DNA of 64,000 bases from Nocardia concava NBRC 100430 (lineage in GTDB: Bacteria; Actinomycetota; Actinomycetes; Mycobacteriales; Mycobacteriaceae): positions 124,001 to 188,000 of the forward strand of contig NZ_BAFX01000074.1 in assembly GCF_000308815.1 (NCBI RefSeq). The letters run 5' to 3'. This document shows positions 7,954 to 23,533 of this stretch, piece by piece; the first letter of the stretch is position 1, and each line of letters opens with the position of its first letter. The notes below the pieces were generated by a model. It did not search any database. It saw only the letters and a program-made list of their open reading frames with translations, and was not told where the DNA came from. The position numbers and the translations under genes were made by a program.

Positions 7954-9393
7954 TCAGGCTCCGCGCAGAGCGGCGTCGAGTTCCGAGGCATCGGCCCAGC
8001 TGCCGTGGAATCCCATGGGAACCCGATGGTTCAGCTTGATCCGGGCGATGGGTGCGGCCGTGAAGTCCCGCGCGTCCTGGACGACGACCTCGCTACGATC
8101 GACGGCGGGATCCCACCAAATGGACAGCAGCCAACCGTCATCCTCGTCCGTGGCATCAGGGCGTGGCACGAATTGTGGTTCGCTGGGTGAGGTCAGCGAA
8201 CCGTCGAGGGGTTGGACCGACGTCTGGCCCGTGAGGTAGTCGTGCTTGGCCACGCCGTCGGTGAACCAGTCTCCGACCCCTCGGGTCGTGGCGTAGTAGC
8301 CGTACCGATGCGACAACCCGGTGCGCTGCTCGTTGATCTGAGGGAACTCGCCGAGGATGTCGGTGGTCTGGCTGTCCTTCACCGTCCCCGCGGCGAGGTC
8401 GAGTTCCCACCGCCAGGGTGTGGCGACCAGCTGCTTGAACCACCAGTTCCAATCCCCGCCCGGCGGTGGGGATTCGAGCTCCTTACGGGTGGGACCGAAG
8501 CGCTCCGTACGGTGCCCATCGACCACGATTCGGGTGCCATCCTGATAGGCATTGAGGAAGTGAGTGGGCGCGAAAACGTCGGGGGAGTCGAGCCAGCGAA
8601 CTACACCGGTCTTGCGATGCAGGACGGCCCATCGGCAGATCGACAATGTCTCCGGTTCCCAGACTGTCGAGGGCTGGCCGTTGAAGACGTTCTCGATGCG
8701 GACCATCGCCGGATAGGCCAGGAAGATCGCGTAGTCGGGCGTGACGGCGTAATCGTGGACGAAAGTGGGAACGCCCAGGTCGACGAGGTGACGATCGAGG
8801 ATCTTGCCGTGCCGGTCGGCCCGGTACCAGGTGAGGGCGCCGTTGACGTTGCCGAAGAACAGGAAGTCACCGTTGGTCGGGTCGACTTTGAAATGGGCCG
8901 TCATCGGTCCGACGATCTCGCCACCGAAGTCGTAGCACCGGCTGACCGTCTCCAGGGTGTCCGGACGCAGCTCGTGTGGAGCGGCCGCTTCGCAAAGTAC
9001 CAGCAATCGATTGTCGTAGAGAGTCACGTGCGTGTTCGCTGGGTTCTTCGGGAGTGTGCCCGGTGGCAGTGCAACGTCCGAGCCATGCATGAAGCTGCCG
9101 AAGATCGCTTGGCCCCGTTGCCTTTCCAATTGCAGCCCCGCAGTGGCGACGTACCGGTTGCGATAGGTTGCTCTGCCGTCGCGGAGGAAGATGGCGTTGA
9201 TCATCCCGTCGCCATCGAACCAGTGATGCCGAGTGGGATCAATCGGGCGATAGGCCTGACTGCTGCTGACTCGATACAGCGCGCCACTCAGCTCACGCGG
9301 GAGCCGTCCCTCGATTTCCAGATCGAAGGCCTCGCCCTCTTCTCGCCATGGTGCGTAAGGGCCGTTGAGAAACATGTTCGTGGGGTCCCACAT
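7954..9393 (-). CDS. Carotenoid cleavage dioxygenase / RPE65 family protein
   Basis: A 479-aa non-haem iron dioxygenase that cleaves a carbon-carbon double bond in carotenoids, apocarotenoids, stilbenes or related phenylpropenoids. The four iron-binding histidines are visible in order: MTAHFKVDP, FVHDYAVTPDY, PTHFLNAYQDG and the C-terminal VPMGFHGSW. The N-terminal HHWFDGDGMI motif is also typical. ATG 9393 is preferred to the GTG at 9399 because GAGGAG lies at proper distance only for the ATG. Transcribed alone and convergent with the MCE gene. The substrate may be a lignostilbene or isoeugenol type rather than a carotenoid; sequence alone does not decide. Confidence 0.9.
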   Translation of the reverse strand: MWDPTNMFLNGPYAPWREEGEAFDLEIEGRLPRELSGALYRVSSSQAYRPIDPTRHHWFDGDGMINAIFLRDGRATYRNRYVATAGLQLERQRGQAIFGSFMHGSDVALPPGTLPKNPANTHVTLYDNRLLVLCEAAAPHELRPDTLETVSRCYDFGGEIVGPMTAHFKVDPTNGDFLFFGNVNGALTWYRADRHGKILDRHLVDLGVPTFVHDYAVTPDYAIFLAYPAMVRIENVFNGQPSTVWEPETLSICRWAVLHRKTGVVRWLDSPDVFAPTHFLNAYQDGTRIVVDGHRTERFGPTRKELESPPPGGDWNWWFKQLVATPWRWELDLAAGTVKDSQTTDILGEFPQINEQRTGLSHRYGYYATTRGVGDWFTDGVAKHDYLTGQTSVQPLDGSLTSPSEPQFVPRPDATDEDDGWLLSIWWDPAVDRSEVVVQDARDFTAAPIARIKLNHRVPMGFHGSWADASELDAALRGA

Positions 9394-9441
9394 GGGCACT
9401 CCTCTTTGTCATGACTGGAATCCGGGTGTGACCACGGTTCA

Positions 9442-11842: not shown

Positions 11843-13345
11843 TCAGCGTGGGGTGGTGTCGGGGAAGCCGTCGCCGAGCCAGTTCGCGAGCACGCGGTCG
11901 CGGACGGCGGCGGGGACGTTGTGGGCGAAGCCGGTGCGCTCGGGGCGAGTCACGCCCACGGGCGGAAGGCAGTTGTAGACGATGCGGGGGTTCATCCAGC
12001 CCTGCGGGTAGTTCCCGATGGCCGGGAAAATGTAGGGCGTGGTCGGCCAATTGAGGACGCCCTCGACGAGAATCCGGTTTTCGGGCCTGGTGTCGTAGCG
12101 ACCCTGCAGCGCCCACACGACCTCGCCGAGATCGGCCGGGTTCACGTCGTCCTCCAGCACGATGACGGTATTGAGCGGGGTGCCGTGCCCACGCATGCCG
12201 AGCGCGGTTTCGGCGATGCGGCGGGACAGGATTCGGCCGTCGGATTCGACGTCGCGCCAGTCGTCGGTGACGGTGACGACGAGCCATCCGCAGGCGGATT
12301 CGAAGGGTGTCCAGGCGGTGGCGACGGGCAGGCCCGCGGTCCGCAGGGTGACCACCATTTCGGCGGCCATGCCAGGGCCGATGATGGTGTGGGTTTCGTC
12401 GGCGGGTTCGCCGGAGGAGGAGAACGGGAAGATCGGGTTGTCCCGGTGGGTGATCGCGTCGACGTGATAAACCGGCTCGGGGGCGGGGGTGTCCGGGAAC
12501 ATGTAGCCGCCGAAGTCGCCGTAGGGGCCTTCCAACGCGAGTTCGGAGATGGAGAGCCGGCCCTCGATGACGATCTCGGCGGTCGCGGGAACCTCCAGAT
12601 CGTTGGTCTCGCACGTGATCACTTCGACGGGTTCGCCGAAATAGCCACCGATGTAGTTGACCTCGTCGATGTCACGCGGCAGCGGTGAGCCCCCCGCGAA
12701 CAACGCCAGGGGTTCGACGCCGAGCGCGAGCGCGAAAGGCATGTCCTGCCCCAGTTTTCGCCATTCCGCGAAGATCTGGCCGAGGTGCTGGAACGGCATG
12801 ACGGTCCCGGTGGCCCGACGCTCGTCGAGCACCTGGATACGGGCGACGGACCAGTTCGTCCAGCGGCCGTCAGGGCTGCGGACGATGATGATGCCCAGGG
12901 TGTTGAGGTAACGGCCGCCGTCTCCCGCATGCAGATATGGCGAGGGCAGCGTCGTCAGGTCGACCTCATCACCGAGCAAGATGTGCTGTTTGCAGGGCGC
13001 GGCCTCGACGCGCACCGGGGGGATCGGGGCGCGATCGCGCGCGGCGACGAGCGTTTCGATGATCTCGCGCGCATCGGCGTGCGGATCCAGGCCGAGAGTG
13101 AGGGCCAGGCGGGAGAGGTGCTGTCCGGGAATCCGGCTGGTGCCGACCGGTGCGGTGAGGGCACGGAAGCCGGGCGCGGTGTCCGTGATCGAGGTGAACA
13201 GTGCTGCGGGGGAGCCGGTTTCGTAGATCCGGCGGGAGATGGCGCCCATTTCGAGGTTCCAGTCGACCTCGCGCTCGACCTCGACCAGCTCGCCTATCTC
13301 GCGGAGCGCCTCGATGTAGTCGCGCAGACTCGAAAAGCGTTTCAT
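11843..13345 (-). CDS. ubiD: UbiD-family prenylated-FMN-dependent decarboxylase
   Basis: A 500-aa decarboxylase of the UbiD superfamily, acting on alpha,beta-unsaturated or aromatic carboxylic acids with prenylated FMN. Family landmarks: N-terminal SLRDYIEALREIGELVEVE, the ARIQVLDERRATGTVMPFQHLGQ segment (prFMN/metal site and catalytic Arg region), the EVPATAEIVIEGRL strand, and ALEGPYGDFGGYM, which carries the catalytic Glu and, five residues on, Asp rather than the Glu of fungal Fdc1. The cofactor maker UbiX is encoded at 20948 in the facing cluster. It is divergent from the SCP2 gene over an 80-bp region with a TetR-type palindrome and heads an operon with the lipase. Substrate unknown. 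Confidence 0.92.
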   Translation of the reverse strand: MKRFSSLRDYIEALREIGELVEVEREVDWNLEMGAISRRIYETGSPAALFTSITDTAPGFRALTAPVGTSRIPGQHLSRLALTLGLDPHADAREIIETLVAARDRAPIPPVRVEAAPCKQHILLGDEVDLTTLPSPYLHAGDGGRYLNTLGIIIVRSPDGRWTNWSVARIQVLDERRATGTVMPFQHLGQIFAEWRKLGQDMPFALALGVEPLALFAGGSPLPRDIDEVNYIGGYFGEPVEVITCETNDLEVPATAEIVIEGRLSISELALEGPYGDFGGYMFPDTPAPEPVYHVDAITHRDNPIFPFSSSGEPADETHTIIGPGMAAEMVVTLRTAGLPVATAWTPFESACGWLVVTVTDDWRDVESDGRILSRRIAETALGMRGHGTPLNTVIVLEDDVNPADLGEVVWALQGRYDTRPENRILVEGVLNWPTTPYIFPAIGNYPQGWMNPRIVYNCLPPVGVTRPERTGFAHNVPAAVRDRVLANWLGDGFPDTTPR

Positions 13346-14737: not shown

Positions 14738-14776
14738 ACACTGGTGTGTCGGCGCCGTATTTCGAAGGAGGCGGCG

Positions 14777-16192
14777 GTGAAGTCGCTGCTCAAGTTGCCC
14801 GAGGATTTCGAGCTACCAGCCCTCCGTCCACAGCAACCGGCGCCGCCCCGGCCGGGGAGCGGCCTGAAGTCGATCCCGGGTGACGCCGGACTGCCCGTCG
14901 TGGCCGATACGTTTCGATACTTCCCGGATCCCGGCGCCTGGTGCGTGCGGCAATACCACCGGTACGGACCCGTGTCGTGGTTCGGGCTGATCGGGCTCAC
15001 CGGGGTGGCCGCGCTCGGCCCGGACGCCTGGGATGTGGTGGCGCGCAACAAGGATCGCGCCTTCGCGGCAGGTCCGGGGTGGGGCAAGATGATCGGCCCG
15101 TTCTTCACCCGCGGTCTGCTGCTGCTCGATTTCGACGAGCACCTTTTCCACAAGCGGGTCATGCAGGAGGCGTTCGGCCGGCCGCGGCTGATCAGCTACC
15201 TGGACGAGATGAACCCGGCCATCACCGCCGCACTGGCGAAATGGCAACCGGGGCAGCGATTCCCGGCCAGCCGTCAGCTCAAACAGCTGACCCTGGACGT
15301 GGCGACCCGGGTGTTCATGGGTGAGGAACCGGGGCCGGAGTCCGACGAGCTGAACGCCGCCTTCACCGACTGCGTGTACGCGGGCTCGGCCCCGATCCGC
15401 TTCCGGATGCCGGGCGCACGCTACCGGCTGCCGGGCACCAGGTGGGCTCGCGGGCTCGACGGCCGCAAGGTACTCGAGCGCCACTTCTACGAGCGTCTCG
15501 CGGACAAGCGCGCATCCACGGGCAACGACCTGTTCACCGTGCTGTGCCACGCGCGGACCGGGAACGGCGAGGAGTTCACCGATGTGGACGTGGTCAACCA
15601 CATGATCTTCCTGATGCTGGCCGCGCACGACACCGCGACCATCACCATGACCACCATGCTCTACCAGCTGGCCAAACATCCGCAGTGGCAACAACGTTGC
15701 CGCGAGGAATCCCTGGCGCTGGGCAAACCGGCCCTGGAGTTCACCGATCTCGATCGGCTGCCCGCACTGGACATGGTGATGAAGGAAGCGCTGCGCCTGG
15801 TCGCACCGATCCCGCACATGCTGCGCTACACGGTGAAGGACACCGAAATCCTCGGCCACTTCGTCCCGCAGGGCACCTATGTGCTCGTCAACCCGCAGAT
15901 GAGCCATCAGCTCCCCGAAATCTGGCCCGACCCGGCGCGATTCGATCCGGAGCGTTTCGCCGAGGACCGCCGCGAGGACAAGGCGCACAAGAACGCCTGG
16001 GTGCCGTTCGGTTCGGGCGCGCACAAGTGCATCGGCATGTACTTCGCGGGTATGGAGATCAAGGCGACCCTGCATCAGATGCTGCAGCGCTTCGAGTGGT
16101 CGGTCGAACCGGGTTACGAGATTCCCTGGGACCGTTGGACATTGCCGATCGCCAAGGACGGCATGCCGGTCGACCTGCGCCCGCTGCGGTAG
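14777..16192 (+). CDS. Cytochrome P450 monooxygenase
   Basis: A 471-aa soluble haem monooxygenase. Landmarks: I-helix AAHDTATIT (acid/threonine pair) near residue 285, K-helix EALR (ExxR), PERF meander, and the haem loop FGSGAHKCIG with the proximal Cys near residue 420. GTG 14777 is preferred because AAGGAGG lies 6-10 bp upstream; the frame extends to 14744 without a ribosome site. It would hydroxylate a hydrophobic substrate, feeding the alcohol and aldehyde dehydrogenases downstream. No ferredoxin or reductase gene is in the cluster, so electrons must come from elsewhere. The operator at 14719 points to TetR control. Confidence 0.93.
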   Translation: MKSLLKLPEDFELPALRPQQPAPPRPGSGLKSIPGDAGLPVVADTFRYFPDPGAWCVRQYHRYGPVSWFGLIGLTGVAALGPDAWDVVARNKDRAFAAGPGWGKMIGPFFTRGLLLLDFDEHLFHKRVMQEAFGRPRLISYLDEMNPAITAALAKWQPGQRFPASRQLKQLTLDVATRVFMGEEPGPESDELNAAFTDCVYAGSAPIRFRMPGARYRLPGTRWARGLDGRKVLERHFYERLADKRASTGNDLFTVLCHARTGNGEEFTDVDVVNHMIFLMLAAHDTATITMTTMLYQLAKHPQWQQRCREESLALGKPALEFTDLDRLPALDMVMKEALRLVAPIPHMLRYTVKDTEILGHFVPQGTYVLVNPQMSHQLPEIWPDPARFDPERFAEDRREDKAHKNAWVPFGSGAHKCIGMYFAGMEIKATLHQMLQRFEWSVEPGYEIPWDRWTLPIAKDGMPVDLRPLR

Positions 16193-16252: not shown

Positions 16253-16298
16253 AACTAGTTCATCAAAGTGCGCGTCCGCGCCCGACCCGAGGCCAGTG

Positions 16299-17864
16299 AT
16301 GTCGACCAGAACAACTCCCCGAAAGCCGGTCACCGCCCCGGTTCTCCAGGTGCACCGCCCCGCGGACGGCACCGTGCTCGCGGAACTACCGATGACGACC
16401 GCCGCACAGGTGCACGAGAAGGTGGAGGCCTTGCGCGTCGCGCAGCCCGCCTGGGAGGCGCTCGGTGTCGCCGGGCGCGCCAGACACTTGGAGAACCTGC
16501 GAGATTGGTTGCTCGACAACCAGGAACGCATGCTCGGGCTCATGCAGGCGGAGGCGGGAAAGCCGCGTGCCGACGCCATGATCGAGCTGGGCTGGATGGG
16601 CGACATCGTGAACACCATGGCCGCGGGCAGCCCGAAGTGGCTGGCGGATCGGCACGTTCGCCCGCATCTGCCACTGCTGGCGACCCGCCGGTTCACCGTG
16701 GTGCGGCGGCCCTTCCCGGTGGTCGGGGTGATCGGTCCGTGGAACTTCCCGACCGTGCTCTGCGCCGGCGACGGCATTCCCGCGCTGTTCGCGGGCGCGG
16801 TGGTGCTGCTCAAGCCCTCGGAGATCACACCGCTGGCGTGTGCGGAGGTGGTGCGCGCCTGGCGCGAGGACATCGGCGCCCCACCCGTGCTCGACGTCGC
16901 GATCGGACTGGGCGAGGTCGGCGCGGCACTGGTCGATGCCGTGGACTTCGTGCATTTCACCGGCTCGGTGCGGACCGGGATGCTGGTCGCCGAGCGGGCG
17001 GCCAAGACGGTGACACCGGTGAGCCTCGAACTCGGCGGCAAGGATCCCTTTGTGGTGCTGCGGGATTCGAATATCGCCCGGGCGGCCAACTGCGCGGTGT
17101 TCAGCGGCCTCGCCAACAACGGCCAGGTGTGCGTGTCCACCGAGCGCATCTACGTCGAGGCTCCGATCTACGACGAATTCGTGGCACGGGTGGTGGCCAA
17201 TGTGCGCGCGCTGCGCCGGGGCACCGACGGCCCGCACATCGGCGTCGAACTCGGCGCGATGACCTCCGCGGCCCAGATCGGCATTGTCGAAGACCATGTG
17301 CGCGAGGCGATCTCGAAGGGTGCGCGCGTCCTGACCGGCGGCAGCCGGGTCGAGCGCGCGGGCAACTGGTTCGAGCCGACCGTCCTGGTCGATGTGGACC
17401 ACTCCATGAAGGTGATGGTGGAGGAGACCTTCGGGCCGGTGCTGCCGATCATGAAGGTCGCCGACGCGGAGGAAGCCATCCGGCTCGCCAACGACTCCGA
17501 ATTCGGGCTCTCGGCAACGGTTTTCAGCGGCGATGTGAAGCGCGGTGAGCAGGTGGCGCGGCGGATCGAGGCCGGTTCGGTGAACGTCAACGACTACGGA
17601 TCCACCACCACCTGCCTGGATGTGCCGATGGGCGGCTGGAAGAAATCCGGCATCGGCTCGCGGGCCGGGTCGACCGCGGTCACGAAATACACCCGCACCC
17701 AGGCGATCGCCAGCCCGCGCGTGCCGACCCTCGACACCGAGGCGTGGTGGTTCCCGTACTCGCCGCTGAAGCAGGGCGTCGTGGAGTGGGGCCTGCGCCT
17801 CCTCAACGCACGCGGCCTGCGACGACTCGGCCTGCGCCGCGATCTGGCCGTCGACGGACGGTGA
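16299..17864 (+). CDS. Aldehyde dehydrogenase (NAD(P)+), first copy
   Basis: A 521-aa member of the aldehyde dehydrogenase superfamily, oxidising an aldehyde to the acid. PWNFPTVL (cofactor-binding start of the Rossmann core), FTGSVRTG, catalytic Glu in LELGGKDPFVV and the nucleophilic Cys in NNGQVCVSTERIYVE are all present. The C-terminal 50 residues (WWFPYSPLKQGVVEWGLR onward) form an amphipathic extension typical of membrane-associated long-chain or P450-linked enzymes. ATG 16299 is adjacent to an in-frame GTG at 16296, and either may be used. First gene of a probable seven-gene operon to 24338. Confidence 0.92.
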   Translation: MSTRTTPRKPVTAPVLQVHRPADGTVLAELPMTTAAQVHEKVEALRVAQPAWEALGVAGRARHLENLRDWLLDNQERMLGLMQAEAGKPRADAMIELGWMGDIVNTMAAGSPKWLADRHVRPHLPLLATRRFTVVRRPFPVVGVIGPWNFPTVLCAGDGIPALFAGAVVLLKPSEITPLACAEVVRAWREDIGAPPVLDVAIGLGEVGAALVDAVDFVHFTGSVRTGMLVAERAAKTVTPVSLELGGKDPFVVLRDSNIARAANCAVFSGLANNGQVCVSTERIYVEAPIYDEFVARVVANVRALRRGTDGPHIGVELGAMTSAAQIGIVEDHVREAISKGARVLTGGSRVERAGNWFEPTVLVDVDHSMKVMVEETFGPVLPIMKVADAEEAIRLANDSEFGLSATVFSGDVKRGEQVARRIEAGSVNVNDYGSTTTCLDVPMGGWKKSGIGSRAGSTAVTKYTRTQAIASPRVPTLDTEAWWFPYSPLKQGVVEWGLRLLNARGLRRLGLRRDLAVDGR

Positions 17865-17910: not shown

Positions 17911-19302
17911 ATGACCGCGGATCACACGGCGGAATCGGCTCGGATCGGCCGCCTCTACGTCGAACTGCTCGGCAATCGTGAGTTCGAGAAGGCCGCCGCG
18001 CTGTGGAAGGCGGGCGAGATCGACGACATCGTCGGCGTCGGCAAGCTCCGGGCCCCGGAGGGGGTCGTCTCCTTCTTCGAGGGCGTGGTCGCGGCCGTAC
18101 CGGACATGCGCCACGAGGTCCTATCGGTCACCGCGCAGGATGACCGGTGCGTGGTGCTGTGGCGCATCTTCGGCACCTTCGACGGGTCCGGCACCCTGAT
18201 GGGGCTCGCCCCCAACGGCCGTGCGCTGAGCATGCTCGGCACCGACGTACTCACCATTCGCGACGGCCAGATCGTCTCGAACACCTCGCTGTCCAACGGC
18301 CTCGAGGTGGCACGCCAGCTCGCCGTCATGCCGCCGCAGGGTTCGATCGCCGAACAGGTGACCTTCGGTCTGGTCAATTCGCTTGCACCGCTGGCCAAGG
18401 CGGTGCGCCGCAAGCGTGCCGAGAGCGCGCGGATACCGGCCGACGCCCTGGCGGACAAGCACGTTGTCATCACGGGCGCGGCGCGTGGCATCGGGCGCTG
18501 CACCGCGGAGGCCTTCGTAGCGGCGGGCGCTCGGGTGGCCATCGGTGACCTGGACGGCGCGGCCGCCGAGGCCACCGCTGCGGAGATCGCCACACGCACC
18601 GGCGGGCACGTCCTCGGTTTCGCCGTGGACGTCACCGACACCGCGGCGTTCGCGCACTTCCTCGACGCGGCCGAGGACGCTCTGGGCGGATTGGATGTCC
18701 TGGTCAACAATGCCGGGATCATGCCCACGGGAGCATTTCTCGAGGAATCGGATCTGCTTACCGACCGCCAGATCGAGGTGAATGTGAAGGCGGTCATCAC
18801 CGGCGCCAAGCTCGCCGGTGGGCGCTTCGCCCGCCGACGCAGCGGCCATATCGTGAATGTCGCCTCCATGGCCGGTCTGTCCCCGGCTCCCGGCGTGGCG
18901 GTCTACTGCGCCACCAAGGCAGCCGTCGTGTCCCTCGGCGACGCGCTGAATCAGGAGTTCACCGGAACCGGCGTGCGGGTCAGCACGATCGCGCCGTCGC
19001 TGGTGCGGACCGAGCTCTCGGCGGGAATTCCGGTGCCGCGCATGCAGGAACGCTTCCTGCTGGTCGATCCGGAGGAGGTCGCCGCCGCGGTCGTCGCGCA
19101 GGTGGTCGGCCGTCGGGGCGGCCTGGTCACCGTGCCCCGCGCGACCGGCGCGTTCGTCCAGTCGACCCGAATGCTGCCCGAAGGCCTGCGCAACACTCTC
19201 TACCGCGTCACCGGCGTCAGCTCGGCCAACTTCCGCACCGACGAGACGGCCCGCAAGAGCTACCGCGACCGGATCGCCGCGGAAAGCGCGGTGGCGCAAT
19301 GA
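17911..19302 (+). CDS. SnoaL-like domain fused to a short-chain dehydrogenase (SDR)
   Basis: A 463-aa two-domain protein. Residues about 1-140 form a SnoaL/NTF2-like alpha+beta barrel (SARIGRLYVELLGNREFEKAA; GLAPNGRALSMLGTDVLTIRDGQIV). From about residue 183 a classical SDR follows: TGAARGIGR (cofactor), NNAGIM, a SMAGLSP serine and the YCATK Tyr-Lys pair. The SDR part would oxidise or reduce an alcohol/ketone, and the SnoaL domain may bind or isomerise the same substrate. SDRs are usually about 250-280 aa, so this fusion is uncommon. Its stop overlaps the next ATG by 4 bp. Confidence 0.88.
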   Translation: MTADHTAESARIGRLYVELLGNREFEKAAALWKAGEIDDIVGVGKLRAPEGVVSFFEGVVAAVPDMRHEVLSVTAQDDRCVVLWRIFGTFDGSGTLMGLAPNGRALSMLGTDVLTIRDGQIVSNTSLSNGLEVARQLAVMPPQGSIAEQVTFGLVNSLAPLAKAVRRKRAESARIPADALADKHVVITGAARGIGRCTAEAFVAAGARVAIGDLDGAAAEATAAEIATRTGGHVLGFAVDVTDTAAFAHFLDAAEDALGGLDVLVNNAGIMPTGAFLEESDLLTDRQIEVNVKAVITGAKLAGGRFARRRSGHIVNVASMAGLSPAPGVAVYCATKAAVVSLGDALNQEFTGTGVRVSTIAPSLVRTELSAGIPVPRMQERFLLVDPEEVAAAVVAQVVGRRGGLVTVPRATGAFVQSTRMLPEGLRNTLYRVTGVSSANFRTDETARKSYRDRIAAESAVAQ

Positions 19303-20936
19303 CACTCGCAGACAGATTCGCCACGGTGATCGTTCCCGGGCACCGCGCGACCGCCGAGGAACTCGACGAGCTGTTCGCGGCGGCCGAGAGCATCGGCATC
19401 GAATTCATGCTGGGGGAGTGGGACGGCGGGCATTTCGCGCTCGGACATCCGATCGAGAAGCAACTCGACGCCATGCGCTGGGCCGGTAAGTCGTTCACCG
19501 ACCGCGACACGGTCTCCCCGATCGTCTGTTTCGATGCGGCCGGCGGGCGCGCGGCCAACCCGTCCTTCGGTGGTGCGCGCCTGCGGGAGATGGTCTATCA
19601 AGGCTCGGTGACCGCCACCATGGTCTACGACGAGCTGCCCATGTTCGATCACTTCCGCAGGATCGACGACGACACCGTCATGGGCGCGATGGACAGCAAG
19701 GGCCGCACCAAACCCGGCTACTTCTATCTCACCCGCCGTGCCACGGCGGAGATCGAGACCTCCGAGAATGCGGAATCTGATACCAGCGCCGAGATTTCCG
19801 GCTCGGCCTCCGTGTTCAAGGCTCAGGTGCCGCCGCTGTTCATCGACGCGGCGTTGATCCGGGCGCGGAGCGGGCCGTTCTCGATCGAACAGGTCGAGCT
19901 GGAAGCGCCCCGCGCCGATGAAGTGCTGGTGCGGATAGCCGCCACGGGTCTGTGTCACAGCGACCTCACGCTGGCCGGGATGTTCGTGGCCGGGCAGTCG
20001 CCCCTCGTGCTCGGCCACGAGGGCGCGGGAACAGTGACCGCCATCGGCGATGAGGTCACCGATCTGGCCGTGGGCGATCGAGTGGTTCTCAGCTATGCCT
20101 GGTGCGGACGATGCCGAAACTGCCTGCGCGGCAAAATGGCCTACTGCGCCGAGGCCGGCACCCTGAACCTGCTCGGTGTGCGCCCCGACGGCAGCACCGG
20201 CATGCGACAGGACGACCGCGACGTGCGCGGCCGGTTCTGCGGCCAGTCGTCGTTCGCCGGGTACGCCCTCGCCGCCGCACACACCGTGGTGCGGGTGCCC
20301 GCGGACATCCCGTTCGAGATACTGGCTCCGCTGGGCTGCGGGGTGCAGACCGGTGCGGGAACCGTGCTGAATTCCCTGCGCCCCGAACCCGGTTCGACGC
20401 TGGCGGTGTTCGGCGCGGGATCGGTCGGCATGGCGGCGATCCTGGCCGCCCGGGTCGCCGACTGCGAGCAGATCATCGCGGTCGACCCGCGCCCGGAGCG
20501 GCGAGCCTTGGCGCTGGAGCTGGGGGCGAGCGCCGCGTTCGCCCCGGCGGAAGCCAAGGACGGCATTCGCGCGGCCACGGGATCCGGTGTCGATTTCGCC
20601 GTGGACTGTGTCGGCAGCCCGGACGTGGTGCGCGCGGCGGTGGGCGCGCTGGACAGCCCTGGCGTCTGCGCGACCGTCGGCGTGCGGGGCAAGGCCAATC
20701 CGATCGAGCTGGATCAGACCAAGCTCGTCGGCAAGGGCCAGACGGTGCGGGGTGTGGTCGAAGGTGATTCGGTGCCTTCGGCTTTCGTTCCCCTGCTGGT
20801 GGATCTGTACCGCGCGGGCCGGTTCCCGGTGGACCGGATGGTCACGACCTTCCCCTTCGAGAAGATCAATGACGCCGTCGCCGCCACTCGGGACGGCACC
20901 GCGGTCAAAGCGGTGCTGACCTTCGGCGAGGCATGA
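19299..20936 (+). CDS. DUF4334 (GXWXG) domain fused to a zinc alcohol dehydrogenase
   Basis: A 545-aa fusion. Residues about 1-155 match GXWXG/DUF4334 proteins: LGEWDGGHFALGH, MRWAGKSF, VYDELPMFDHFRRIDDDTVMGAMD. After a Ser/Glu-rich linker, residues about 180-545 are an aryl-alcohol-dehydrogenase-type zinc enzyme: TGLCHSDLTLAG (catalytic Cys), GHEGAG, four structural cysteines in WCGRCRNCLRGKMAYC, and a GAGSVGMAA cofactor turn. It would oxidise an aryl or allylic alcohol made by the P450. DUF4334 has no established activity; covalent linkage suggests it handles the same substrate. Overlaps its neighbours by 4 bp on both sides. Confidence 0.9.
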   Translation: MTLADRFATVIVPGHRATAEELDELFAAAESIGIEFMLGEWDGGHFALGHPIEKQLDAMRWAGKSFTDRDTVSPIVCFDAAGGRAANPSFGGARLREMVYQGSVTATMVYDELPMFDHFRRIDDDTVMGAMDSKGRTKPGYFYLTRRATAEIETSENAESDTSAEISGSASVFKAQVPPLFIDAALIRARSGPFSIEQVELEAPRADEVLVRIAATGLCHSDLTLAGMFVAGQSPLVLGHEGAGTVTAIGDEVTDLAVGDRVVLSYAWCGRCRNCLRGKMAYCAEAGTLNLLGVRPDGSTGMRQDDRDVRGRFCGQSSFAGYALAAAHTVVRVPADIPFEILAPLGCGVQTGAGTVLNSLRPEPGSTLAVFGAGSVGMAAILAARVADCEQIIAVDPRPERRALALELGASAAFAPAEAKDGIRAATGSGVDFAVDCVGSPDVVRAAVGALDSPGVCATVGVRGKANPIELDQTKLVGKGQTVRGVVEGDSVPSAFVPLLVDLYRAGRFPVDRMVTTFPFEKINDAVAATRDGTAVKAVLTFGEA

Positions 20937-20947
20937 GGGAGACGACC

Positions 20948-21508
20948 ATGACCCGCAGGCTGATCATCGGAGTGAGCGGCTCCAGCGCACCGCAATTGGG
21001 CTATGCCATGTTGAAGGCGCTGCACGGGCGCACCGACGTGGAGACGCACCTGGTGCTGACCCGTGGCGCCGAGCTCAGCATCAAGCTCGAAATGGGTATG
21101 TCCGCAGGCGAATTCGAGGCCCTGGCCGATGTCGTGCACGATGCGGCGAACCTGGGCGCGTCGATCTCGTCGGGCTCCTTCCGCACCTGCGGCATGGTCG
21201 TCGTTCCGTGCTCGATGAAGACCCTGGGCGCCATCGCCTCCGGCACCAGCACCGACCTGGTCGGCCGAGCCGCCGACGTATGCCTGAAGGAGCGGCGCAG
21301 GCTGGTGCTGGTGACCCGGGAGACACCGTTGAACCTCATCCACATTCGGAACATGGAGACCGTCACCCTGGCCGGAGCGACGGTCCTGCCACCGGTCCCG
21401 GCGTTCTATCACAAGCCGCGCACCATCGACGACCTGCTGAATCAGACGGTGGGCAAGGTGCTCGACCAGTTCGACATCGAGCACTCCCTGTTCGAGCGCT
21501 GGTCATGA
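20948..21508 (+). CDS. ubiX: UbiX-family flavin prenyltransferase
   Basis: A 186-aa FMN prenyltransferase that makes the prFMN cofactor of UbiD enzymes from reduced FMN and dimethylallyl phosphate. Family motifs: GVSGSSAPQLGYAML near the N-terminus (FMN phosphate loop), VVPCSMKTLGAIASGTSTDLVGRAADV, RRLVLVTRETPLNLIHIRNM, PPVPAFYHKPRTIDDL and the C-terminal helix. ATG 20948 follows GGGAG; the frame also contains an ATG at 20933 overlapping the previous stop. Its presence in the operon supports the UbiD assignment at 11843. It is coupled to the next gene by an ATGA overlap. Confidence 0.93.
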   Translation: MTRRLIIGVSGSSAPQLGYAMLKALHGRTDVETHLVLTRGAELSIKLEMGMSAGEFEALADVVHDAANLGASISSGSFRTCGMVVVPCSMKTLGAIASGTSTDLVGRAADVCLKERRRLVLVTRETPLNLIHIRNMETVTLAGATVLPPVPAFYHKPRTIDDLLNQTVGKVLDQFDIEHSLFERWS

Positions 21509-21960
21509 CGGTCCCCGCGGAAGTTCGTACGGCGCTGGCCGGTCGTCCCGAGGTCGGCGCGTGGGATCCCATGTTCCCCTTGCTGACCGTGGACACGACC
21601 GGTTTCCCACACGTGTGCCTGCTGGGCCGCGCGGAGCTGTCCACCGACGCCGACCACGTGTACGCCGTGCTCGCGAGCCCAACGACGGTCGGCAACCTGA
21701 AGCGAACCGGACTGGCCACCCTGATCGTCATCGGGGCCACGGCCGCCGCGTACTGCAAGCTGACAGCGGGCCCGGGTCAGCTCGAGCGCGACGGGCTGCA
21801 CGGCTTCGAATTCACCCTCGCGGAGGTGAAATTCGACAGCGCCGCAGTCGATCTCACCCCGCCCCGATTCCAGGTCGATGCCCGCCTGACCGAGTCGGAG
21901 CGCTGGCAGGACTCGGCGGCGCTGCTCGCCGAACTGGCCGGAAACCACACGATCCACTGA
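21505..21960 (+). CDS. Pyridoxamine-phosphate-oxidase-like split-barrel flavoprotein
   Basis: A 151-aa protein resembling small split-barrel FMN-binding proteins: MFPLLTVDTTGFPHVCLLGRAEL, VYAVLASPTTVGNLKRTGLATLIVIG and YCKLTAGPGQLE. The ATG overlaps the ubiX stop by 4 bp, so the two are translationally coupled. This suggests a flavin-related role, such as supplying reduced FMN, stabilising prFMN, or a third subunit like the small proteins that accompany some UbiD/UbiX pairs. That role is inference; the fold assignment is moderate. Confidence 0.65.
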   Translation: MTVPAEVRTALAGRPEVGAWDPMFPLLTVDTTGFPHVCLLGRAELSTDADHVYAVLASPTTVGNLKRTGLATLIVIGATAAAYCKLTAGPGQLERDGLHGFEFTLAEVKFDSAAVDLTPPRFQVDARLTESERWQDSAALLAELAGNHTIH

Positions 21961-21979: not shown

Positions 21980-23533
21980 ATGCCCCTCCCGTCGACGACG
22001 ACATTCGACCGACTCCGGACCCTGGTGGCCATCGGCGACCCGCACAACCGGTCGGAACGCCGCATACCGGAGGTGTTCACCGGCCGCGAGCTGGCGACCA
22101 TTCCGGTCGGCACCGCCGAGGACGTGACCGCCGCGGTCGCGAAAGCTCGTCGCGCCCAGCAGGAATGGGCGCAGCGTCCGATCCGGCAGCGGGCCGCGAT
22201 CCTGGAACGGTTTCGCACCCTGGTGTTCGAGCACGGCGATGTCGTGCTGGACATGCTGCAGGCCGAATGCGGTAAGTCCCGCGCCTCGGCGCAGGAGGAG
22301 CTGCTCGATCTGGCGCTCAACGCGCGATATTACGCTCAACGCGGACCGGATCTGCTCGCGCCCGAGCGCGTTTCGGCCCCGCTGCCCGGGGTGATCAAGA
22401 CCGTCGTCCGGTACCAGCCCAAGGGTGTGGTCGGCATCATCGCGCCCTGGAACTATCCGATCGCGCTGTCGGTCTCCGATGCCCTGCCCGCACTGCTCGC
22501 CGGGAACGGAGTGATCGTCAAACCCGACAGTCAGACGCCGTACAGCACCCTGGCGGCCGTGGAATTGCTGTACCGCGCGGGAATTCCACGCGAGCTGCTC
22601 GCCGTGGTGCCCGGTCCCGGGGCGGTGGTCGGATCGGCCTTGATCGAGCAGTGCGACTACCTCATGTTCACCGGCTCCTCGGCGACCGGTCGGCTGCTGG
22701 CCGAGCAGTGCGCACGCCGGCTGATCGGCTGCTCGGCCGAGCTCGGCGGCAAGAACCCAATGATCGTCACCGCCGGGGCCGATCTCGACATTGTCGCCAA
22801 AGCCGCACTGCGGGCGTGCTTCTCCAACGCCGGGCAGCTGTGCATGGCCATCGAACGCATCTACGTGGAACAGTCCATCGCGGCGCGGTTCCTCGAGCTG
22901 TTCGGCCGCTATGCCCGGGGCATGGTCCTCGGCACCGCTTACGACTTCACCGTCGATATGGGTTCGCTCATGTCCGAGGAGCAGCTGAAGACCGTTTCCC
23001 GGCACGTCGACGACGCGAAAGCCAAGGGGGCCACCGTGATCGCAGGCGGCAACCCTCGCCCCGATATCGGCCCGCTTTTCTACGAGCCGACCGTGCTGAC
23101 CGGCGTCACCGACGACATGGACTGTGCCCGGAACGAAACGTTCGGACCGGTGGTCTCGGTCTACCCGGTGCGCGACGTGGCCGAGGCCGTGGCGCGCGCC
23201 AACGACAGCGAATTCGGGCTCAATGCCAGCGTGTGGGCGGCCTCGGCTGCGGAAGGTGAGGCCATTGCGGCCCGGATCCGTTGCGGCACCGTCAATGTGG
23301 GGGAGGGATACGGTCCCGCCTACGCCACTATCGGCGCACCCATGGGAGGCATGGGATCCTCCGGCCTCGGTCGTCGCCACGGCCCCGATGGATTGCTGAA
23401 ATACACTGAACCGCAAACCATCTCGACCTCGCGCACCATTGTCGCGGACGCTCGCTTCGGCGTACCCGAGCACATCTGGCGACGTGCGCTCGCGCCCATG
23501 GTCCAGTTCGTCCAGCGGATACCGGGGTTCTGA
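21980..23533 (+). CDS. Aldehyde dehydrogenase (succinate-semialdehyde-dehydrogenase-like), second copy
   Basis: A 517-aa aldehyde dehydrogenase distinct from the one at 16299. PWNYPIALSVSDALPALLAGN, FTGSSATGRLLAEQ, catalytic Glu in AELGGKNPMIV and Cys in NAGQLCMAIERIYVE are visible, as is PMGGMGSSGLGRRHGPDGLLKYTE. It resembles enzymes annotated as succinate-semialdehyde dehydrogenases, but that name is often unreliable. Two aldehyde dehydrogenases in one operon suggest either two successive aldehyde intermediates or different chain lengths. It begins 20 bp after the flavoprotein and ends 1 bp before the SDR start. Confidence 0.9.
   Translation: MPLPSTTTFDRLRTLVAIGDPHNRSERRIPEVFTGRELATIPVGTAEDVTAAVAKARRAQQEWAQRPIRQRAAILERFRTLVFEHGDVVLDMLQAECGKSRASAQEELLDLALNARYYAQRGPDLLAPERVSAPLPGVIKTVVRYQPKGVVGIIAPWNYPIALSVSDALPALLAGNGVIVKPDSQTPYSTLAAVELLYRAGIPRELLAVVPGPGAVVGSALIEQCDYLMFTGSSATGRLLAEQCARRLIGCSAELGGKNPMIVTAGADLDIVAKAALRACFSNAGQLCMAIERIYVEQSIAARFLELFGRYARGMVLGTAYDFTVDMGSLMSEEQLKTVSRHVDDAKAKGATVIAGGNPRPDIGPLFYEPTVLTGVTDDMDCARNETFGPVVSVYPVRDVAEAVARANDSEFGLNASVWAASAAEGEAIAARIRCGTVNVGEGYGPAYATIGAPMGGMGSSGLGRRHGPDGLLKYTEPQTISTSRTIVADARFGVPEHIWRRALAPMVQFVQRIPGF

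What the first reader, a model, noticed from the sequence alone, without database searches (positions are those of the whole stretch)
19299..20936. Fusion of a DUF4334 (GXWXG) domain to an aryl-alcohol-type zinc dehydrogenase
The N-terminal 155 residues match DUF4334 and the C-terminal 365 a complete zinc dehydrogenase. Fusion to an enzyme of known chemistry is a clue (Rosetta-stone argument) that DUF4334 binds or processes the same alcohol or aldehyde.
Basis: partly seen in the sequence, partly recalled or inferred. Interest (0 to 1): 0.65.

Follow-up and report, generated by a model that had tools for sequence, protein, structure and literature searches.

The report
DUF4334 barrel fused to alcohol dehydrogenase
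A bacterial gene joins a small barrel-like protein domain of unknown function to a zinc alcohol dehydrogenase, and in many related bacteria the same two parts are neighbouring genes, a strong hint that they work together.

Summary
Confirmed. Window 19299-20936 (+) is one 545-residue frame: GXWXG + DUF4334 (residues 24-146), a linker predicted disordered (150-176) and a complete zinc dehydrogenase (about 180-545) with all seven zinc ligands. Codon statistics favour one frame through the linker. The link goes beyond this gene: in the genus, 76 of 148 genomes carry DUF4334 and this dehydrogenase as separate genes, matched regions 5-41 bases apart; 20 of 26 chosen pairs have a divergent TetR gene upstream; a genome of another order has the reverse fusion. 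A second DUF4334 class shows no such dehydrogenase on the same strand within about 1.5 kb (0 of 38 places). DUF4334 is predicted to be a barrel like the uncharacterised structure 4MVE, with weak lipocalin-like resemblance. Neighbours include P450, two ALDHs, UbiX, a PhdC relative and UbiD. A functional link is well supported; whether DUF4334 binds the alcohol or aldehyde, or catalyses another step, is not shown.

The parts
19299..19748 (+). GXWXG + DUF4334 domain, residues 1-150: predicted barrel-like, about nine strands after N-terminal helices
   Evidence: Pfam; AF2 model pLDDT 91.2; match to 4MVE, TM 0.88, Z 24.9; coordinates of the model were not seen
19746..19826 (+). linker, residues 150-176, Ser/Glu/Ala-rich, predicted disordered
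   Evidence: pLDDT under 50 at 150-176; coding frame continuous
19836..20933 (+). zinc-dependent medium-chain dehydrogenase domain, residues about 180-545
   Evidence: Pfam, PDB matches, zinc ligands
17911..19302 (+). upstream neighbour: SnoaL-like domain fused to a short-chain dehydrogenase; overlaps the fusion's start by 4 bases
   Evidence: Pfam, ORF coordinates
16296..17864 (+). aldehyde dehydrogenase family protein
   Evidence: Pfam; no NCBIfam model over cut-off among the 25 of 42 rows shown
14744..16192 (+). cytochrome P450
   Evidence: Pfam
20933..21508 (+). UbiX-family flavin prenyltransferase; overlaps the fusion's stop by 4 bases
   Evidence: Pfam; NCBIfam UbiX family models over cut-off
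21505..21960 (+). 151-aa relative of PhdC, a prenylated-flavin maturase; overlaps UbiX by 4 bases
   Evidence: PDB 9srg, E 2.8e-23; 9SRG is PhdC (PMC13040415, passage)
21980..23533 (+). second aldehyde dehydrogenase family protein
   Evidence: Pfam; NCBIfam PRK09407, named succinic semialdehyde dehydrogenase, 780 bits over cut-off 521
11843..13345 (-). UbiD-family decarboxylase
   Evidence: Pfam; TIGR00148 over cut-off

Best explanation
The gene encodes a two-domain enzyme. The C-terminal half is probably an active, NAD-dependent zinc dehydrogenase for a hydrophobic, perhaps aryl or allyl, alcohol. The N-terminal DUF4334 half is a small barrel that binds the substrate or the aldehyde product and serves the dehydrogenase as its dedicated carrier or holding domain, tethered by a flexible linker. 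In most relatives that have both, the two proteins come from a tight two-gene operon, often beside a TetR regulator. In the window the fusion sits in a longer run of genes in which P450, the alcohol dehydrogenase and an aldehyde dehydrogenase could make an acid that a UbiD enzyme, supplied by UbiX and a PhdC relative, could decarboxylate. Shown here: the fusion, the intact zinc ligands, the conserved pairing and the neighbouring gene families. Predicted: the barrel fold. Inferred: activity, ligand binding, the substrate class, operon membership and the pathway order.
For: Complete dehydrogenase with all zinc ligands. Of 82 class A DUF4334 rows in 78 of 148 genomes of the genus, 76 lie 5-41 bases before this dehydrogenase on the same strand, distances between matched regions; a further one, G085:C24, is paired with a more distant dehydrogenase (L140). 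Pairs outside the genus: G480, G184, G713, G692, G775 and Tsukamurella; reversed gene order in G395 (Tsukamurella annotation). Reverse-order fusion in G868, a single-contig genome. Control: 0 of 38 class B DUF4334 places have this dehydrogenase on the same strand within about 1.5 kb (rows chosen by score, not at random). Divergent TetR-like gene, matched regions 86-108 bases upstream, in 20 of 26 chosen pairs. DUF4334 model pLDDT 91.2, matching 4MVE at Z 24.9. Neighbours P450, ALDHs, UbiX, PhdC relative, UbiD.
Against: No ligand, substrate or activity was found for any DUF4334 protein here, and lipocalin-like matches are weak (Z 7.3 and below, a level the tool calls common). The conserved polar residues (H50, K64, D111, D117, D123) could equally mean catalysis. 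DUF4334 also exists without the dehydrogenase: 63 of the 148 genomes have a DUF4334 match but none of class A at the threshold used (141 less 78), and class A members elsewhere sit beside an aminotransferase or between a flavin monooxygenase and an FMN dehydrogenase. pTM 0.68 with a disordered linker gives no defined domain contact. Of 30 positions conserved at 90% or more the window differs at two, L29A and R101Q. Against the aromatic route: the one ALDH whose NCBIfam model passes its cut-off is named succinic semialdehyde dehydrogenase, and the lignostilbene-dioxygenase model for the gene at 7954-9399 scores 231 against a cut-off of 800.
Confidence: 0.47

Rival explanations
1. DUF4334 is an enzyme in its own right: a barrel that catalyses the step just before or after the dehydrogenase (for example isomerisation, hydration, cyclisation or epoxide opening), so the fusion is a bifunctional catalyst.
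For: Invariant W41, W61, D111, D117 and near-invariant H50, K64, R101, Y110, D123 across 54 DUF4334 sequences of two classes are more polar than a plain hydrophobic carrier needs. The spirocyclases OlmO and OssO appear, weakly, in the Foldseek list (ranks 5 and 7, prob 0.44 and 0.30). DUF4334 also occurs beside other oxidoreductases.
Against: No catalytic relative was found; the only close structure is an uncharacterised protein (4MVE). Whether the conserved residues point into the barrel was not examined, as no coordinates were available. The window's domain has Q at near-invariant R101.
Confidence: 0.3
2. DUF4334 is a regulatory, stabilising or assembly domain of the dehydrogenase and does not touch substrate.
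For: A small domain on a flexible linker and a partner made in fixed order from a tight gene pair would also fit.
Against: Near-invariant residues shared with DUF4334 proteins that have no such dehydrogenase neighbour point to a function of its own; dehydrogenases of this family also occur without it (42 of 83 in the tree sample; sample of best hits, contig ends not checked).
Confidence: 0.16
3. The fusion is a sequencing or assembly artefact, or a neutral join of neighbouring genes without meaning.
For: In 16 distinct places the two genes are in the same frame with one TGA between the matched regions, and in one more with two, so joining is easy; no second genome with this DUF-first fusion was found.
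Against: The linker is about 27 coded residues with normal codon statistics, not merely a lost stop codon; a reverse-order fusion exists elsewhere; the pairing itself is widely conserved.
Confidence: 0.06

Closest known systems
4MVE, Tcur_1030 of Thermomonospora curvata (DUF4334 family, uncharacterised solved structure)
   Same: Same family by profile (E 1.4e-46) and same fold as the model (TM 0.88, Z 24.9, 41% identity)
   Different: Stand-alone 151-residue protein; whether its gene neighbours a dehydrogenase was not examined
Benzyl alcohol dehydrogenase of Acinetobacter calcoaceticus (1F8F) and Burkholderia ambifaria zinc dehydrogenase (5TNX)
   Same: Same fold; 40% and 48% identity to the dehydrogenase half over the model
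   Different: The PDB matches cover only the dehydrogenase half; substrate of the window enzyme unknown
Two-gene DUF4334 - dehydrogenase pair, as in Tsukamurella tyrosinosolvens EL451_RS03025/RS03030
   Same: Same two families in the same order, genes overlapping by 4 bases
   Different: Two proteins, not one; no P450, ALDH or UbiD listed in the annotated stretch shown, which is incomplete
   Same: Same two parts in one frame (Pfam)
   Different: Dehydrogenase first, DUF4334 last: most simply a separate fusion event
Lipocalin / fatty-acid-binding (calycin) barrels
   Same: General arrangement (VIA Z up to 7.3 for lipocalin-like entries)
   Different: 5-14% identity and Z under 8 in those rows, which may be only a common arrangement

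Membership tests
GXWXG / DUF4334 family (PF14231 + PF14232) | both Pfam models above gathering score, in order | tested here: met
   70.8 and 90.8 bits against 25 and 25
GXWXG / DUF4334 family (PF14231 + PF14232) | G-x-W-x-G motif | tested here: met
   G39, W41, G43
GXWXG / DUF4334 family (PF14231 + PF14232) | fold of the solved member 4MVE | tested here: met
   model TM 0.88, Z 24.9; a prediction, not a solved structure
Zinc-dependent medium-chain dehydrogenase (ADH_N + ADH_zinc_N) | both domains above cut-off | tested here: met
   86.3 and 84.4 bits against 23.5 and 31.8
Zinc-dependent medium-chain dehydrogenase (ADH_N + ADH_zinc_N) | catalytic Cys-His-Cys and four structural Cys ligands | tested here: met
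   C219, H240, C347; C269, C272, C275, C283, 32 of 32 rows; assignment to the two sites recalled
Zinc-dependent medium-chain dehydrogenase (ADH_N + ADH_zinc_N) | glycine-rich nucleotide motif | tested here: met
   GAGSVG 372-377; motif recalled
Aryl-alcohol dehydrogenase (by activity) | oxidises benzyl-type alcohols | not testable with these tools
   only similarity to 1f8f
NDMA-dependent alcohol dehydrogenase TIGR03989 | score above curated cut-off | tested here: not met
   243.3 bits against 440
S-(hydroxymethyl)mycothiol dehydrogenase TIGR03451 | score above curated cut-off | tested here: not met
   204.3 bits against 512.9
Lipocalin / calycin superfamily | clear structural match to a lipocalin | tested here: inconclusive
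   lipocalin-like entries only at Z 7.3 and below
UbiX-UbiD-PhdC prenylated-flavin decarboxylase system (neighbourhood) | flavin prenyltransferase, decarboxylase and maturase relatives present | tested here: met
   UbiX and UbiD family models over cut-off; PhdC 9srg E 2.8e-23

The most novel reading that the evidence does not exclude
DUF4334 is a dedicated carrier or catalytic partner of a branch of zinc alcohol dehydrogenases: a barrel that hands a hydrophobic alcohol or aldehyde to or from the enzyme, or transforms it, wired to it by gene pairing and by fusion in both orders. That would give a function to a DUF family and a new kind of two-part dehydrogenase.
Probability: 0.35. Interest if true: 0.68.

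Novelty: new variant of a known kind. Interest (0 to 1): 0.52.

Why it matters
DUF4334 has a solved structure but, in the papers found here, no function. A conserved two-gene unit, fusions in both orders and a neighbouring regulator turn 'domain of unknown function' into a testable proposal with a named partner enzyme and candidate substrate classes. If true it would add a substrate-handling or catalytic barrel to one of the best studied enzyme families and help to annotate many genes now named only DUF4334.

Tried and rejected
Sequencing-error join: disfavoured by codon statistics across the linker, absence of repeats at the junction and the reverse fusion elsewhere.

Independent origin of the window's pairing: the DUF tree puts the window's domain with L004 (a contig filed as Pedobacter, 51% identity, support 100/96), outside the other class A domains, which suggested a separate event. 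The dehydrogenase tree does not settle it. One clade of all DUF-linked dehydrogenases is rejected (p-AU 1.75e-51, 41 rows against 42), but holding the window together with the main linked group plus three unlinked rows nested in it is not rejected (p 0.328). G868's dehydrogenase already groups with them (66/92, not starred), and the same test for G395 did not finish. So the number of origins of the pairing is open; the two fusions, being in opposite orders, are most simply two events. L004 has no such dehydrogenase in the stretch held.

Full-length fold for a domain contact: the first combined alignment (A3) misaligned the DUF rows and was dropped; A4 gave pLDDT 88.2, pTM 0.68 and a disordered linker, so no contact can be claimed. 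The 50 Foldseek rows shown for that model match only the dehydrogenase half.

DUF4334 on plasmids: of 129 records I looked at the neighbours in five more (Sinorhizobium, Rhizobium, Nostoc, Synechocystis, and a second Tsukamurella copy) besides; no shared theme. In S. medicae an iron-containing alcohol dehydrogenase, another family, lies about 3 kb away on the other strand.

Limits of the controls: the 38 class B places are 32 in the genus and 6 outside it, mostly the best-scoring rows. In wider stretches of two genomes, G096 and G042, class B DUF4334 lies 5.5-5.8 kb from the pair on the same strand, and in G235:C9 a weakly scoring dehydrogenase lies 2.6-2.9 kb away. The TetR scan used two seeds; 6 of 26 pairs had no divergent match, two of these having one on the same strand.

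Naming the genus: a nearby 5-kb stretch matched plasmid records mainly through malate synthase G, best 80% to Rhodococcus ruber, which does not name it.

Literature: 'DUF4334' gave 1 paper (one passage read: a probably acquired gene in Bdellovibrio); 'GXWXG' gave 2 (passages of one read: a transposon insertion in MAB_0274c; the other not opened); '4MVE' none; the rows shown gave nothing on a DUF4334-dehydrogenase link. Only open-licence PMC papers are held.
Full report
WHAT IS THERE. The ORF at 19299-20936 (+) has 545 codons and starts with ATG. Pfam places GXWXG at residues 24-82, DUF4334 at 91-146, ADH_N at 206-334 and ADH_zinc_N at 376-495, each over its gathering score. Residues 182-541 match PDB 5tnx (E 1.6e-100) and 183-540 match benzyl alcohol dehydrogenase 1f8f (E 3.7e-85). 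All seven zinc ligands are present and identical in 32 of 32 aligned rows. A codon model trained on 19 other genes of the window gives the annotated frame the best score in every window that lies inside the gene, linker included, and no repeat marks the junction. The fused frame is therefore taken as real.

HOW RARE IS THE FUSION, HOW COMMON IS THE PAIR. The full-length protein as query matched end to end in one frame only in the window's own genome: among 150 genomes of the genus, 397 of the order and 216 of the class at E<=1e-100; the sets overlap, few candidates per genome were scored and two lists were cut. The parts, unfused, are a common pair. With the class A DUF4334 protein and its dehydrogenase from genome G079 as queries, 148 genomes of the genus gave 82 DUF rows in 78 genomes (E<=1e-22) and 78 dehydrogenase rows in 77 genomes (E<=1e-105). 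Matching the coordinates, 76 DUF rows in 76 genomes lie 5-41 bases upstream of a dehydrogenase row on the same strand (distances between matched regions). Of the six unpaired DUF rows one is the window's fusion; one (G085:C24) is paired with a more distant dehydrogenase (L140); four (G040:C5, G014:C4, G070:C37, G126:C23) are not paired at this threshold, and of these G040:C5 and G126:C23, read over wider stretches, have no such dehydrogenase on the same strand (L148, L147). Of the two dehydrogenase rows without DUF4334 one starts at a contig end (G107) and one is a 53% match (G061:C4). The genus is unnamed in these tools; from genome sizes and relatives I suspect Nocardia, but no call establishes it.

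OUTSIDE THE GENUS. In a spread of 396 genomes of the phylum, 18 have DUF4334 (25 places, genus members included; 0 of 14 control genomes). Among these 25 places and the loci fetched, the pair also occurs in G480 and G184 (same order) and in G713, G692 and G775 (same class), and in Tsukamurella tyrosinosolvens, where the annotated genes overlap by 4 bases. G395 has the two genes in reverse order, 58 bases apart. G868, of another order, has one frame with the dehydrogenase first and GXWXG + DUF4334 last (Pfam 132-424 and 512-638 of the 641-residue stop-to-stop frame). Two fusions in opposite orders are most simply separate events.

CONTROL AND COUNTER-EVIDENCE. A second class of DUF4334, with an insert, forms its own group in the tree (21 of 55 rows, 100/99). 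At 38 such places held with about 1.5 kb on each side, 32 in the genus and 6 outside, none has this dehydrogenase on the same strand; these were mostly the best-scoring rows, not a random draw. In the genus 141 of 148 genomes have a DUF4334 match and 78 a class A match, so 63 have DUF4334 only of another class at these thresholds. In wider stretches of G096 and G042 a class B gene lies 5.5-5.8 kb from the pair, and in G235:C9 a weakly scoring dehydrogenase lies 2.6-2.9 kb away. Class A members in another genus of the family follow an aminotransferase gene (Pfam-tested in one, L166; the others by like sequence starts), and one in a third genus lies between a flavin monooxygenase and an FMN dehydrogenase (L154). 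DUF4334 is thus not tied to this dehydrogenase alone. Of the 83 dehydrogenases in the tree sample, 42 have no DUF4334 found within 200 bases on the same strand (best hits, contig ends not checked). The linked dehydrogenases are clustered on the tree (4 changes against a shuffled mean of 27.9), but the trees do not settle how often the link arose.

REGULATION. In 26 pairs examined (fetched because the pair had been noticed), 20, all in the genus, have a TetR-like gene on the opposite strand with matched regions 86-108 bases upstream of DUF4334; two others (G713, G692) have one on the same strand. The pair thus looks like a small inducible unit of its own; induction is inferred.

STRUCTURE. DUF4334 residues 1-158 with 54 aligned sequences gave a model of pLDDT 91.2 and pTM 0.85: N-terminal helices and about nine strands. 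By sequence profile the only clear solved relative is 4MVE, Tcur_1030 of Thermomonospora curvata, an uncharacterised protein (E 1.4e-46), which is also the top structural match (TM 0.88; Z 24.9). The next rows are designed barrels (Z 7.7 and below) and lipocalin-like proteins (Z 7.3 and below), a level at which the tool warns that only a common arrangement may be shared. I did not see coordinates, so the closed barrel is inferred from these matches. The full-length model (pLDDT 88.2, pTM 0.68) shows both domains and a disordered linker at 150-176; no domain contact can be claimed. Thirty positions are conserved at 90% or more in DUF4334; the window departs at two (L29A, R101Q).

NEIGHBOURHOOD. 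On the same strand run P450 (14744-16192), ALDH (16296-17864), a SnoaL-SDR fusion (17911-19302), the fusion, UbiX (20933-21508), a 151-residue protein (21505-21960) and ALDH (21980-23533). Neighbours in this run overlap by 4 bases or are 19-103 bases apart; the fusion overlaps the genes on both sides by 4 bases. The 151-residue protein has no Pfam or NCBIfam match at E 0.001 but matches PDB 9srg at E 2.8e-23, which is PhdC, the prenylated-flavin maturase of Mycolicibacterium fortuitum (PMC13040415; abstract and passages read). A UbiD-family gene lies at 11843-13345 (-) and an RPE65-family gene at 7954-9399 (-) whose best NCBIfam model, lignostilbene dioxygenase, is far under its cut-off (231 against 800). 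Of the two ALDHs the one at 21980 passes the cut-off of a succinic semialdehyde dehydrogenase model, which does not favour an aromatic aldehyde. From general knowledge (recalled), alcohol dehydrogenase plus ALDH would give an acid, and UbiD enzymes with prenylated flavin decarboxylate aromatic or alpha,beta-unsaturated acids. This is a coherent but unproven route, and it would suit an aryl or allyl alcohol as substrate.

EXPLANATION AND RIVALS. A second catalytic domain is the main rival (0.30), supported by the conserved polar residues. A regulatory or stabilising role (0.16) and an artefact or neutral join (0.06) are less likely.

NOVELTY. The searches of the held library showed no description of a DUF4334-dehydrogenase link in the rows shown or in the passages read. 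Both families are known; the conserved pair and the fusions in both orders make a new variant of a known kind.

Noticed in passing
window 17911-19302 (+): A second unusual fusion directly upstream: a SnoaL-like domain joined to a short-chain dehydrogenase. In 148 genomes of the genus the other matches at E<=1e-60 begin at query residue 142 or later, that is at the dehydrogenase part, and in 219 genomes of the order none but the window's own reaches E<=1e-85 (few candidates per genome scored).
   Followed up: partly
window 21505-21960 (+): A 151-residue protein without Pfam or NCBIfam match is a relative of PhdC, the prenylated-flavin maturase, and sits next to UbiX.
   Followed up: partly
window 7954-9399 (-) and 11843-13345 (-): An RPE65-family gene (best NCBIfam model lignostilbene dioxygenase, under its cut-off) and a UbiD decarboxylase near the run might mean breakdown of an aromatic or stilbene-like compound.
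   Followed up: no
   Followed up: partly
L166:5361-8469 (+): In genomes of another genus of the family, class A DUF4334 follows an aminotransferase gene and lies near an enoyl-CoA hydratase (Pfam-tested in this locus only).
   Followed up: partly
L004:3214-3657 (+): The closest relative seen of the window's DUF4334 domain (51%) lies on a contig of a metagenome bin named Pedobacter whose other genes look proteobacterial to me; the bin may be contaminated. Not tested.
   Followed up: no
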